Source of the DNA: Bauldia sp.
GTDB lineage: Bacteria > Pseudomonadota > Alphaproteobacteria > Rhizobiales > Kaistiaceae
Direction: 5' to 3'
Assembly (NCBI GenBank): GCA_020442065.1
Contig: JAGRKZ010000128.1
Location: 1 to 43,009 of the forward strand
DNA length: 43,009 bases
The notes under the pieces were generated by a model. It saw only the letters and a list, made by a program, of their open reading frames with translations. It was not told where the DNA came from and did not search any database. Within the stretch, counting starts at the first letter, position 1, and each line of letters starts with the position of its first letter. Both the position numbers and the translations under genes were made by a program. Positions 5,850 to 17,936 of the stretch are shown here, piece by piece.

Positions 5850-7007
5850 GTGTCGGAAGGGTCGGTACGGTTTGCTCTGGTGGGAGCCGGCTTCATTGGC
5901 CGGATTCACGGGCTTGCAATCCAGGCCGTCAACCGGGTTTTCGGCGAGACGCCGCTTCGCGCCGAAGCAGCCATCCTGATCGACCAGAATGCCGCCCTTG
6001 CCGAGCGGCAGGCGCGGCAGCTCGGCTTCGCCGAATGGACGACCGACTGGGAGACCGGGATCGACGGGGCGGACGCCGTGGTAATCGCGGCGCCGAGCTT
6101 CATGCACCGTGACATTGCCATCGAGGCGGCGGCGCGGGGCAAACACATTCTCTGCGAGAAGCCGGTCGGCCGGTCCGTCGCCGAGGCGGAAGAGATTGCA
6201 GCAGCGGCGGCGAGGGCAGGCGTCACCAATGGGGTCGGTTTCACCTACCTCCGTGCGCCGATGGTGCGCCACGCCATCGATATCGTGCAGTCGGGGCTGA
6301 TCGGGCGCCCGGTGAGCTTTCGCGGCTGGCATGCCGAGGACTACCTCGCCGATCCGGCGGCCCCCTTCTCCTGGCGGCTCGACGCCAGTCTCGCCGGGCG
6401 TTCCGGGTCGCTCGGCGACCTCGGCTGGCACATCATCTCCATCGCGCGGGCGCTGTGCGGGCCGATCGCCTCCCTCGATGCGCTCGCCCACACCGCCTAC
6501 CCGCACCGGCGTTCCGGCGATGATCCCGCGCGCCCTGTCGAGAACGAGGACTGGGCGGCGATGCTGGTCCGTTTCCGGAGCGGTGCGGTCGGGACCATCG
6601 AATCGAGCCGCATCGCCCATGGCCGCAAGATGGATATCGGGTTCGAGCTGATCTGCGAGCGCGGCAGTATCGCCTTCGATGGCGAGCGCACCAACGAGTT
6701 GTCGCTCTACCGCGCCGACGAATCTGCGGCGGTCCAGGGCGCTCGCACGATCCGCATCAACGGCGCCCATCCCGACTACGCCGCGTTCATCCCGGCGCCA
6801 GCGCACGGTCTGGGCTTCAATGATCTCAAGACCATCGAAATCCACGCCTTCCTGCAGGCGATTTCCGAGGGACGGAACCTCTCCCCCGATCTCGATGAGG
6901 CCTGTCGCATCGCCCGCATCTGCGAGGCGGCGCTCGCGGCGTCGGCCAGCGGGCTGCGGATTGAGGCGCCGGAGACCGGCATGACGGAACCGAAGGTGGC
7001 GGCATGA
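5850..7007 (+). CDS. Gfo/Idh/MocA family NAD(P)-dependent dehydrogenase
   Basis: This is a 385-residue sugar or cyclitol dehydrogenase. The N-terminal Rossmann motif is VGAGFIGRIHG. GKHILCEKPVGRS carries the conserved EKP lysine. SLGDLGWHIISIARALCG supplies the catalytic Asp/His pair of the family. The C-terminal alpha/beta domain is normal in length. The GTG at 5850 is preceded by a purine-rich GGACGGAG and places the Rossmann motif close to the N-terminus. An ATG at 5811 is possible but gives an unusual leader. It is the first gene of the operon and overlaps the next by four bases. With the IolE-like neighbour, an inositol-dehydrogenase-type oxidation of a hydroxyl to a ketone is plausible, but the substrate is not proven. 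Confidence 0.9.
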   Translation: MSEGSVRFALVGAGFIGRIHGLAIQAVNRVFGETPLRAEAAILIDQNAALAERQARQLGFAEWTTDWETGIDGADAVVIAAPSFMHRDIAIEAAARGKHILCEKPVGRSVAEAEEIAAAAARAGVTNGVGFTYLRAPMVRHAIDIVQSGLIGRPVSFRGWHAEDYLADPAAPFSWRLDASLAGRSGSLGDLGWHIISIARALCGPIASLDALAHTAYPHRRSGDDPARPVENEDWAAMLVRFRSGAVGTIESSRIAHGRKMDIGFELICERGSIAFDGERTNELSLYRADESAAVQGARTIRINGAHPDYAAFIPAPAHGLGFNDLKTIEIHAFLQAISEGRNLSPDLDEACRIARICEAALAASASGLRIEAPETGMTEPKVAA

Positions 7008-7924
7008 GCGCGCGGATCGGGATCAATCCGATCACCTGGACCAATGACGACGTGCCCGAGCTCGGCGGCGACACGTCGCTCGAGACGTGCCTCGCCGAGA
7101 CCCGTGCGGCCGGCTATCTCGGCACCGAGCTGGGCGGCAAGTTTCCGCGCGACAGCGCGGTGCTCGGACCGATCCTCGCTGGGCACGACCTCAAGCTCGT
7201 CGGCGGTTGGTGGGACGGACGCATCCTCGACCGCAGCGTCGAGGAGGAATTCGAGGCGCTGCTGCCGCACCTGACGCTTCACCGCGACCTCGGCGCGCCG
7301 CGGGTCGTCTATGCCGACACCTCGCGCGGTCGCCATGGCGCGATCTGGGAGCCGATATCGAACCGGCCGACCCTCGCCGACGACGAATGGGCCGGCTACG
7401 GCCGCAAGGTCACGGCGCTGGCCGAGAAGATGGACGACTTCGGCGTCGGCATGGCCTTCCATCACCACATGGGGACGGTGGTCGAGAGCGACGCGGAAGT
7501 CGATCGGCTGATGGCGGTCACGGGTCCGGCCGTGGGTCTGCTTTACGACACCGGGCACAGCGCCTTCTCCGGCGGCGATCCGGTCGCGCTGGTCAAGCGG
7601 CATGCGGCGCGGATCGTCCATGTCCACTGCAAGGACACCCGCCCGGACGTGCTGGCCAAGGCGCGGCGCGACGACCAGAGCTTCATGCAGGCGGTGCTCG
7701 ACGGCATTTTCACCGTACCGGGCGACGGCAGCGTCGACTACCCCGCGATCCTTCGCCACCTCCACGACGCCGGCTATGCCGGTTGGCTGGTGGTCGAGGC
7801 TGAGCAGGACCCGCGCAAGGCCCATCCGCTGACCTATGCGAGCCTCGGTTACCGCAATCTCGTGGCCCTCGCCGAGGGGGCCGGCTTCGTCGTCGAGACG
7901 CGGGAGAGCGGCGGACGTGCGTGA
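7004..7924 (+). CDS. IolE-like inosose dehydratase / sugar phosphate isomerase-epimerase family TIM barrel
   Basis: The 306-residue protein belongs to the AP-endonuclease-2/xylose-isomerase-like TIM barrels. It opens with GINPITWTNDDVPELGGDT and continues TELGGKFP, very close to the N-terminus of 2-keto-myo-inositol dehydratase (IolE). Likely metal ligands are the Glu of GTELGG, the Asp/His of YDTGH, the His residues of IVHVHCKD and the Glu of VVEAEQD. IolE removes water from a keto-cyclitol to give a diketone. The gene overlaps the dehydrogenase by ATGA, implying coupled translation and consecutive steps. The rest of a standard iol operon (iolD, iolB) is absent, so the true substrate may be a modified cyclitol or another ketose. 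Confidence 0.85.
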   Translation: MSARIGINPITWTNDDVPELGGDTSLETCLAETRAAGYLGTELGGKFPRDSAVLGPILAGHDLKLVGGWWDGRILDRSVEEEFEALLPHLTLHRDLGAPRVVYADTSRGRHGAIWEPISNRPTLADDEWAGYGRKVTALAEKMDDFGVGMAFHHHMGTVVESDAEVDRLMAVTGPAVGLLYDTGHSAFSGGDPVALVKRHAARIVHVHCKDTRPDVLAKARRDDQSFMQAVLDGIFTVPGDGSVDYPAILRHLHDAGYAGWLVVEAEQDPRKAHPLTYASLGYRNLVALAEGAGFVVETRESGGRA

Positions 7925-17118: not shown

Positions 17119-17936
17119 CCGAGGTTCCGGCAATCGAGCTCAAGGGCGTCTCCAAGCATTTCGGCTCGGTCATCGCGCTCCGCGACATCGACATCAAGGT
17201 CCATCCCGGCGAGGTGCACTGCCTGCTCGGCGACAACGGCGCCGGCAAGTCGACGCTGATCAAGATCCTGTCGGGCGTTCATCGTCCCACCCACGGCCAG
17301 ATTCTCGTCGACGGCGTGCCGGTGAGCTTCCGCAGCCCGCGCGACGCGGCGGAGTATGGCGTCGCGACCGTGTTCCAGGATCTCGGCATGATCCCGCTGA
17401 TGAGCATCTCGCGGAACTTCTTCCTCGGCCGCGAGCCGCTCAAGGGCATCTTCCCGTTCACCCGCTTCGACAAGGAGAAGGCCAACACCGTGTCGCGCCA
17501 GGCCATGGCCGACATCGGCATCGACATCCGCGACCCCACCCAGGCGGTCGGCACGCTCTCCGGTGGCGAGCGGCAGTCGGTGGCGATCGCGCGCGCCATC
17601 CACTTCGGGGCCAAGGTGCTGATCCTCGACGAGCCGACCTCGGCGCTTGGCGTCCACCAGGCGGCGATGGTGCTGAAGTTCGTCATCGAGGCGCGGCTTC
17701 GCGGCCTCGCGGTGATCTTCATCTCGCACAACATCCACCATGCCTATCCGGTCGGGGATGTGTTCACGCTGCTCAATCGCGGCCGGCGCGCTGGGACCTT
17801 CCGCAAGTCCGAAATCACGCGCGACGAGGTGGTGGCGATCATGTCGGGCGGCGAGGACCTCAAGGCCGTCGAAGCCGAGATCGACGCGCTGCTCGCCTCG
17901 ATCCACCAGAACGAGGCTGCCCGCCCCTCGGCGTGA
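17115..17936 (+). CDS. CUT2-type sugar ABC transporter ATPase, single nucleotide-binding domain (system 2)
   Basis: This is a 273-residue ATPase with Walker A GDNGAGKST (from residue 39), Q-loop TVFQDLGM, signature LSGGERQSVAIARAI, Walker B VLILDEPTSAL and switch His in ISHN. Like the system 1 ATPase it has one nucleotide-binding domain rather than the usual fused pair. The start at 17115 is set by the ATGA overlap with the permease. A charged C-terminal tail of about 30 residues follows the core. It is the last gene of the plus-strand operon, and its stop lies four bases before the convergent frameshifted gene. Confidence 0.93.
   Translation: MTEVPAIELKGVSKHFGSVIALRDIDIKVHPGEVHCLLGDNGAGKSTLIKILSGVHRPTHGQILVDGVPVSFRSPRDAAEYGVATVFQDLGMIPLMSISRNFFLGREPLKGIFPFTRFDKEKANTVSRQAMADIGIDIRDPTQAVGTLSGGERQSVAIARAIHFGAKVLILDEPTSALGVHQAAMVLKFVIEARLRGLAVIFISHNIHHAYPVGDVFTLLNRGRRAGTFRKSEITRDEVVAIMSGGEDLKAVEAEIDALLASIHQNEAARPSA

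What the first reader, a model, noticed from the sequence alone, without database searches (positions are those of the whole stretch)
5850..17936. Eleven-gene operon that looks like an uptake and breakdown route for an N-acyl or amino cyclitol/sugar
Seen: eleven same-strand genes, three of the junctions being ATGA overlaps and the rest 31-96 bases apart. They encode a dehydrogenase, an IolE-like lyase, two complete sugar transporters, a YdjC deacetylase, a DegT aminotransferase and a dimethylformamidase-like hydrolase. Known: each family acts on sugars, cyclitols or amides. Inference: the deacetylase and amidase-like protein would remove acyl groups, the aminotransferase the amino group, and the dehydrogenase and IolE-like enzyme would process the resulting polyol. 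I know of no described pathway with this set.
Basis: partly seen in the sequence, partly recalled or inferred. Interest (0 to 1): 0.75.

Follow-up and report, generated by a model that had tools for sequence, protein, structure and literature searches.

The report
Extended rhizopine-type aminocyclitol breakdown operon
Eleven adjacent bacterial genes, which share a regulator type, a control-site pattern and several gene families with the rhizopine-degrading genes of legume symbionts, are predicted to import an amino-inositol, likely strip off its acyl and amino groups, and pass the ring to inositol breakdown, which would add candidate enzymes to a poorly understood pathway.

Summary
In detail: eleven close, same-strand genes (5850-17936) of the families named. 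The aminocyclitol reading points the right way, but the set has a described relative: the rhizopine (moc) catabolism genes of rhizobia. A MocR-type regulator (50-51% identical to rhizobial MocR) is divergent from it. The gap holds a moc-box-like pair of direct repeats with the published 11-13-11 spacing, the best site in the window; 0 of 49 control loci score 18 bits or more. The IolE is the rhizopine MocC type, not the canonical type, which the genome also has. The first transporter is 74-80% identical to one lying between mos- and moc-type genes of Rhizobium. A YdjC match lies close to mocA on 15 of 15 plasmid records with a MocA match. In same-genus genome G002 most of these genes form two separate MocR-linked units, so the 11-gene operon looks like a merger. 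DegT and the DMFase-like protein are additions; orthologs of MocA and MocB, and mocDEF, are not in it. iolB, iolC and iolD are elsewhere in the genome. Best reading: uptake, deacylation and transamination of an N-acylated inosamine. The substrate, and N-acylation above all, are untested. New variant of a known kind.

The parts
4261..5736 (-). MocR-type regulator gene (GntR + class I aminotransferase domains), divergent from the operon; likely GTG start at 5736
   Evidence: Pfam; start codon; 50-51% identity to MocR of rhizobial moc loci; 73-75% to the MocR beside g1-g2-g9-g10-g11 in G002/G004
5749..5783 (+). moc-box-like operator: two 11-bp direct repeats 13 bp apart
   Evidence: best site in the window, 19.9 bits, next 11.6; 1 of 200 shuffles reach it; 0 of 49 control loci reach 18 bits; published moc-box geometry in PMC10107442
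5850..7007 (+). g1 Gfo/Idh/MocA-family dehydrogenase; nearest solved relatives are a putative dehydrogenase and scyllo-inositol/L-glucose dehydrogenases; best NCBIfam model levoglucosan dehydrogenase, below cut-off
   Evidence: 73% in G002/G004; absent between MocR and g2 in G003
7004..7924 (+). g2 IolE-family inosose dehydratase of MocC type
   Evidence: 384.9 bits against cut-off 290; 68-73% to IolE of moc and module A loci, 49-52% to canonical IolE
7977..8966 (+). g3 solute-binding protein, transporter 1
   Evidence: 76-79% to the SBP between mos- and moc-type genes in Rhizobium
9044..10201 (+). g4 permease, transporter 1
   Evidence: 74% in Rhizobium indicum
10198..11046 (+). g5 ATPase, transporter 1
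   Evidence: 80% in Rhizobium indicum
11081..11956 (+). g6 YdjC/ChbG-family deacetylase homolog
   Evidence: residues D15, D16, H66, H136, H233; homologs in moc loci
11989..13269 (+). g7 DegT/StrS-family aminotransferase
   Evidence: K177 in the motif; next to YdjC in 5 of 5 same-genus genomes
13301..14845 (+). g8 DMFase-like hydrolase (DMFA2_C)
   Evidence: predicted fold nearest N-acetyl-(R)-beta-phenylalanine acylase and DMFase
14878..15843 (+). g9 solute-binding protein, transporter 2 (start could be 14842 or 14857)
   Evidence: 446.5 bits to NCBIfam rhizopine catabolism SBP, cut-off 420, scored from 14842; start candidates
15940..17118 (+). g10 permease, transporter 2
   Evidence: 59-63% in module A loci
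17115..17936 (+). g11 ATPase, transporter 2
   Evidence: 64-69% in module A loci

Best explanation
This eleven-gene cluster, with its divergent MocR-type gene and moc-box-like repeat, is predicted to be a rhizopine-type catabolic operon that would import an amino-inositol, likely N-acylated, and convert it to inosose for the inositol pathway. Steps. (1) MocR would sense the amino compound and act at 5749-5783 (site shown, binding inferred). (2) Two ABC importers would take up the substrate or two related substrates (families shown, ligand inferred). (3) YdjC, and perhaps the DMFase-like enzyme, would remove an N-acyl group (residues shown, reaction inferred). (4) DegT would move the amino group from the inosamine to a keto acid, the reverse of MosB (inferred). 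(5) Gfo/Idh would oxidise or interconvert inositol isomers (inferred). (6) The MocC-type IolE would dehydrate the inosose (family shown, reaction inferred). (7) iolD, iolB and iolC elsewhere in the genome would finish (genes shown). The operon looks like a merger of two MocR-linked units: MocR|g1-g2-g9-g10-g11, and transporter 1 with MocR, YdjC and DegT.
For: MocC-type IolE: 422-454 bits to IolE of moc/module A loci against 270-315 to canonical IolE, own genome's included. In plasmids, 15 of 259 records with an IolE match are 60-80% identical and the other 244 are under 60%; the 15 are the same records that hold MocA and YdjC matches. Transporter 1: 74-80% to one between mos- and moc-type genes (mos roles from PMC6668481, passages). 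Relatives of transporter 2, MocC-type IolE, YdjC, MocR and a 66% MocA form one cluster in Roseateles. Operator. Two units in G002 and moc-box-like sites before three cassettes in G025. IolD 853, IolC 387 and IolB 330 bits in the own genome, all over cut-off. The g8 model matches an N-acetyl hydrolase best.
Against: g1 is only 28-33% to rhizobial MocA; rhizobial MocB gives no match to g9 and is outside the 'rhizopine SBP' family; mocDEF is not in the window. The two rhizopines named in PMC6668481 are not N-acylated, so YdjC in moc loci is itself unexplained. Two of 12 MocC-type loci in relatives (G112, G094) lack YdjC and transporter 2. In the class sample no other genome of 385 has an IolE above 394 bits, so the MocC type is local here. 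DegT's nearest solved relatives are sugar aminotransferases (KdnA 201 bits, perosamine synthetase 180), with a scyllo-inositol transaminase at 162, and it is 33% over 256 residues to the MosB-like protein. DMFase-like relatives elsewhere sit with amidases or amino-acid transporters. The third iron ligand of DMFase (Y440) could not be placed. G003 lacks g1. No ligand or expression data.
Confidence: 0.6

Rival explanations
1. Rhizopine-type route for a plain (non-acylated) inosamine: YdjC does other hydrolytic chemistry, such as on an imine, enamine or ring-opened intermediate, and the DMFase-like protein is an accessory amidase.
For: [quoted passage not shown]
Against: YdjC keeps the five residues of the ChbG deacetylase site, and the g8 model matches an N-acetyl hydrolase best.
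Confidence: 0.22
2. Uptake and catabolism of ordinary inositol isomers or inositol conjugates; the amino-handling genes act on something else.
For: IolE passes the myo-inosose dehydratase cut-off; relatives of transporter 2 and YdjC sit in canonical iol clusters in G411 and G187.
Against: The genome already has canonical iolE and iolD on C110 and iolC and iolB on C74; MocR-type regulators and moc-boxes point to an amino inducer; the IolE is the MocC type.
Confidence: 0.1
3. Two unrelated sugar systems that happen to be fused.
For: The genes lie in two separate places in G002 and G004; among the five same-genus genomes full-length g8 is found only in the window and G003.
Against: In G002 both units have a MocR-type gene and a moc-box-like site; three cassettes with such sites lie together in G025; transporter 1 lies beside moc genes in Rhizobium.
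Confidence: 0.08

Closest known systems
Rhizopine catabolism locus mocRABCDEF (Sinorhizobium meliloti L5-30; similar loci in Rhizobium and Phyllobacterium)
   Same: Divergent MocR-type regulator, moc-box geometry, MocC-type IolE, YdjC homolog, and in Rhizobium the same transporter 1 nearby.
   Different: No MocA or MocB ortholog and no mocDEF in the operon; adds DegT, a DMFase-like protein, a different Gfo/Idh and transporter 2; one gene run instead of several transcription units.
myo-Inositol (iol) catabolism
   Same: IolE-family dehydratase, Gfo/Idh dehydrogenase, CUT2-type importer; likely shares the downstream iolB, iolC and iolD steps.
   Different: IolE is not the canonical type; the operon lacks iolB, iolC and iolD.
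MosB, scyllo-inosose:glutamate aminotransferase of rhizopine synthesis
   Same: DegT/StrS family and the predicted reaction in reverse.
   Different: 33% identity over 256 residues to the MosB-like protein of Rhizobium indicum; sits in a catabolic set without mosDEF.
N,N-dimethylformamidase / N-acetyl-(R)-beta-phenylalanine acylase
   Same: DMFA2_C domain, fold matches at E 1.9e-22 to 3.8e-19, equivalents of Y399, H519 and E521.
   Different: 514 aa instead of about 775; Y440 equivalent not placed; substrate unknown.

Membership tests
Rhizopine (moc) catabolism locus | MocR-type regulator divergent from the catabolic genes | tested here: met
   Pfam domains, 50-51% identity to rhizobial MocR
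Rhizopine (moc) catabolism locus | moc-box: two 11-bp direct repeats 13 bp apart in the MocR gap | tested here: met
   19.9 bits with a matrix trained on 7 other loci, window left out; 1 of 200 shuffles; 0 of 49 control loci at 18 bits or more
Rhizopine (moc) catabolism locus | MocC-type IolE-family protein | tested here: met
   68-73% to MocC-type against 49-52% to canonical IolE. The tree does not settle it: the own canonical IolE falls in the same open fork on a long branch
Rhizopine (moc) catabolism locus | MocA ortholog | tested here: not met
   g1 only 28-33% to rhizobial MocA
Rhizopine (moc) catabolism locus | MocB ortholog | tested here: not met
   rhizobial MocB is ribose/galactose-binding-like and gives no match to g9 or g3 at 1e-5
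Rhizopine (moc) catabolism locus | mocDEF (3-O-methyl handling) in the locus | tested here: not met
   no match in the window over 60 bits; MocD homologs 59% and 46% elsewhere in the genome
Rhizopine (moc) catabolism locus | growth on or induction by scyllo-inosamine | not testable with these tools
   needs an experiment
NCBIfam NF052284 rhizopine catabolism SBP | score over curated cut-off | tested here: met
   g9 446.5 against 420; g3 142.9, below. The SBP of one iol cluster, L097, also passes with 497, so the name is no proof of ligand
Canonical iol operon | iolB, iolC, iolD and canonical iolE together | tested here: not met
   only an IolE-family gene, of the other type; iolD on C110, iolC and iolB on C74
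ChbG/YdjC deacetylases | metal site D, H, H and catalytic D, H | tested here: met
   D16, H66, H136; D15, H233 by alignment to solved relatives
ChbG/YdjC deacetylases | deacetylase activity | not testable with these tools
   needs an assay
DMFase 2-Tyr-1-carboxylate iron site | Y399, Y440, E521 ligands and H519 | tested here: inconclusive
   Y137, E254 and H252 match Y399, E521 and H519; Y440 not placed
MosB | orthology to MosB | tested here: not met
   33% over 256 residues to the MosB-like protein in L143; MosB of L5-30 itself was not compared

The most novel reading that the evidence does not exclude
N-acylated inosamines are an unrecognised nutrient class, and this operon is a complete MocR-controlled route for them: YdjC, with a DMFase-family acylase, unblocks the amine and DegT removes it. 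The same YdjC is an overlooked standard enzyme of rhizopine catabolism itself.
Probability: 0.35. Interest if true: 0.8.

Novelty: new variant of a known kind. Interest (0 to 1): 0.62.

Why it matters
I found no description of how the amino group leaves rhizopine (search listings; passages of PMC10107442 and PMC6668481), and PMC10107442 calls MocC a protein of unknown function. The YdjC found with mocA on 15 of 15 plasmid records and the DegT here are concrete, testable candidates. The rhizopine regulator and its promoters are used to build plant-to-bacterium signalling (PMC6668481, PMC10107442), so further MocR/moc-box pairs and importers of the same kind are possible parts. The comparison with G002 also suggests a merger of two operons under one type of regulator.

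Tried and rejected
Whole-set conservation by the DMFase-like gene: of 11 full-length g8 places in 151 relatives (own included) only G003 carries the set, and none of 31 named loci does. Clustering its other neighbours gave only generic ABC transporter groups and small groups (two loci had no gene call for g8). Filing g7 under MosB: rejected on identity. Filing g9 as MocB: rejected. Taking the NCBIfam name of g9 as proof of rhizopine: rejected, since the SBP of an iol cluster also passes. Placing YdjC by tree: g6 groups with the transporter 1/DegT unit (100/98), the moc and most module A YdjCs form another clade (100/99), and the link between the two is unresolved. IolE tree: mostly open forks and long branches, so I rely on scores. 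DegT elsewhere: 4 of 385 class genomes at 1e-60 (own included); G348 lies beside a MocR but no YdjC, G490 is a short contig, G240 has no related neighbours; on a Rhizobium plasmid a 41% relative lies beside NRPS genes. Taxonomy of the genome was not established.

Rows left out: from the trees I dropped repeat fetches of one place and near-identical plasmid copies. YdjC matches 75 plasmid records; 20 were listed and I fetched 14 of these (not H47, H48, H52, whose coordinates adjoin mocA, nor H58-H60). Of the 14, 12 are moc-type and two (L105, L110) are not. Of the 9 class-level YdjC genomes I fetched 6 besides the window (not G292, G154): G411 and G187 are iol clusters, the other four are neither iol nor moc by similarity.
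Full report
Observation. Eleven same-strand genes lie at 5850-17936. Three junctions are ATGA overlaps; the rest are gaps of 31-96 bases. The enzymes keep their catalytic residues: YdjC D15/D16/H66/H136/H233 against the ChbG site described in PMC9402603 (passages), DegT K177, DMFase-like Y137/H252/E254 against Y399/H519/E521 of DMFase in PMC7686228 (passages). Y137, H252 and E254 are invariant in 34 of 34 aligned sequences.

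A missed neighbour. The divergent gene 4261-5736 is a MocR-type regulator (GntR plus aminotransferase domain), 50-51% identical to the MocR of rhizobial rhizopine loci. This led to the rhizopine catabolism genes mocRABCDEF (PMC10107442, passages).

Operator test. PMC10107442 reports moc-boxes: two 11-bp direct repeats separated by 13 bp. I built a matrix from the MocR gaps of seven other loci (L104, L107, L109, L137, L138, L139, L143) and scanned the window. The best of all positions on both strands is 5749 (19.9 bits, next 11.6), inside the 113-bp gap between MocR and g1; 1 of 200 dinucleotide shuffles reaches it. As a check, the second-best site in L144 and L116 (16.5 bits) lies between mocR and mocD, where the paper also reports a moc-box. 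In loci fetched afterwards the top site lies in a MocR gap or just upstream of g1: L196 25.1, L197 19.7, L198 19.4, L199 31.3, L200 19.4 bits. None of 49 control loci (839,085 bases; top 15.9) reaches 18 bits. Against: L136 (G008), where no MocR was found, and L133 (G004, second unit) have no strong site, and L132 has a second site of 19.3 bits that I did not explain.

IolE type. g2 scores 422-454 bits (68-73%) against IolE proteins of moc loci and of module A (below), but 270-315 bits (49-52%) against canonical IolE, the genome's own included. In 72,556 plasmid records, 259 have an IolE match at 1e-40; 15 are 60-80% identical and 244 under 60%, the next listed at 56.8%. Those 15 are the 15 records with a MocA match at 1e-40, and all 15 are among the listed YdjC hits. 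In 14 of the 15 the YdjC match lies within 0.4 kb of mocA; in Roseateles it is about 4 kb away in the same run of genes. The 15 records are few lineages (R. leguminosarum group, S. meliloti group, Phyllobacterium, Roseateles). In one S. meliloti record (CP050559) the YdjC match is partial and has no listed gene. I found no mention of a deacetylase in rhizopine catabolism: the search 'rhizopine' with 'deacetylase' lists 4 papers; I read passages of one, PMC5320631, where the deacetylases belong to ectoine and ornithine metabolism, and of the other three saw only the listing.

Transporters. g3, g4 and g5 are 76-79%, 74% and 80% identical to an ABC transporter of pea, lentil and Lathyrus rhizobia that lies between a DegT/MFS/GMC-dehydrogenase set and the moc genes. 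That set fits mosB, mosC and mosDEF as described in PMC6668481 (passages). The five Rhizobium records are close relatives; in Phyllobacterium (L109) and S. meliloti (L107, L118) I saw no close transporter 1 in the stretch fetched. g9 passes the NCBIfam 'rhizopine catabolism SBP' cut-off, but so does the SBP of an iol cluster, and rhizobial MocB is a different protein. In Roseateles, relatives of g2, g6, g9, g10, g11, MocR and a MocA (66%) form one cluster. I call MocR | IolE-YdjC-SBP2-permease-ATPase module A; it recurs in G019, G071 and G110, and without a detected MocR in G008 and G129.

Two units merged. In 151 relatives, YdjC at 1e-30 is found in 13 and MocC-type IolE (470 bits or more; the rest at most 365) in 12. 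I examined these loci. Of the 13 YdjC loci, 11 lie beside MocC-type IolE, DegT, MocR or one of the two transporters; G105 and G005 do not. Of the 12 IolE loci, MocR was detected nearby in 10 (not G008; in G129 the contig ends, but a 33.6-bit site is there), transporter 2 in 10 (not G112, G094), and YdjC within about 15 kb in 8 (not G002, G004, where it is elsewhere in the genome, nor G112, G094, where none reached 1e-30). In a class sample of 385 genomes no genome but the own has an IolE above 394 bits. In G002 and G004 one unit is MocR | g1-g2-g9-g10-g11 (73-84% identity). A second, separate place holds transporter 1, MocR, YdjC and DegT in G002 and G001, and only YdjC and DegT in G004. The window's operon thus looks like the first unit with g3-g8 placed between g2 and g9. 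In G025 homologs of all but g8 lie within about 16 kb (a 38% full-length g8 relative is on another contig), with moc-box-like sites before SBP1, between SBP2 and DegT, and before g1. G003 has g2-g11 in order without g1.

Mechanism. Shown: genes, families, residues, regulator type, repeat, context, and iolD (853 bits), iolC (387 bits) and iolB (330 bits) elsewhere in the genome, all over cut-off. Inferred: uptake of an inosamine-like compound, deacylation by YdjC and perhaps g8, transamination by DegT to inosose, dehydration by the MocC-type IolE, and completion by Iol enzymes. For g8, the AlphaFold model (mean pLDDT 88.3) matches N-acetyl-(R)-beta-phenylalanine acylase best (E about 1e-22) and DMFase next, which favours an N-acyl hydrolase. 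g8 is the least certain member: relatives elsewhere sit with amidases or amino-acid transporters.

Against. The operon fails three features of the moc locus (MocA, MocB, mocDEF), so I do not file it as a moc locus. The two named rhizopines have no acyl group, so a deacetylase in moc loci needs another explanation or an acylated natural substrate. DegT's nearest solved relatives are sugar aminotransferases. No binding, growth or expression data exist here.

Verdict. New variant of a known kind, interest 0.62.

Noticed in passing
L106, L107, L109, L112-L119, L143, L144 (rhizobial plasmids): A YdjC-family gene or match directly follows mocA in rhizobial moc loci; 15 of 15 plasmid records with a MocA match have one nearby (Roseateles included).
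   Followed up: partly
L145:11881-16309 (pTi-SAKURA): A relative of transporter 1 (SBP 51-53%) sits on Ti plasmids with a LacI-type regulator and an amidohydrolase.
   Followed up: no
L094:3498-6332: A DegT (73%) and MocR (49%) pair beside a different transporter and a distant Gfo/Idh gene, without YdjC or IolE in the stretch.
   Followed up: no
window 18556-23580: A DRL/SAF-domain oxidoreductase and a ROK regulator (minus strand), then a Peripla_BP_4 binding protein and a PfkB kinase (plus strand); the DRL gene is also downstream of the operon in G003 (89%).
   Followed up: no
L097, L098: YdjC, a binding protein and a Gfo/Idh gene within canonical iol clusters of two class-level relatives.
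   Followed up: partly
G000:C53:14197-15231 and G000:C268:8354-9310: Two MocD homologs (59% and 46%) elsewhere in the genome; the C53 one is followed by a MocF-like gene (46%).
   Followed up: partly
L132:2008-2042 (G002): A second moc-box-like site (19.3 bits) about 2 kb upstream of the SBP1 gene, with no gene assigned to it.
   Followed up: no
window 38003-41230 (minus) and 37883-39601 (plus): Long overlapping ORFs on opposite strands; the plus-strand one has no Pfam match and the 1075-aa minus-strand one was not examined.
   Followed up: no
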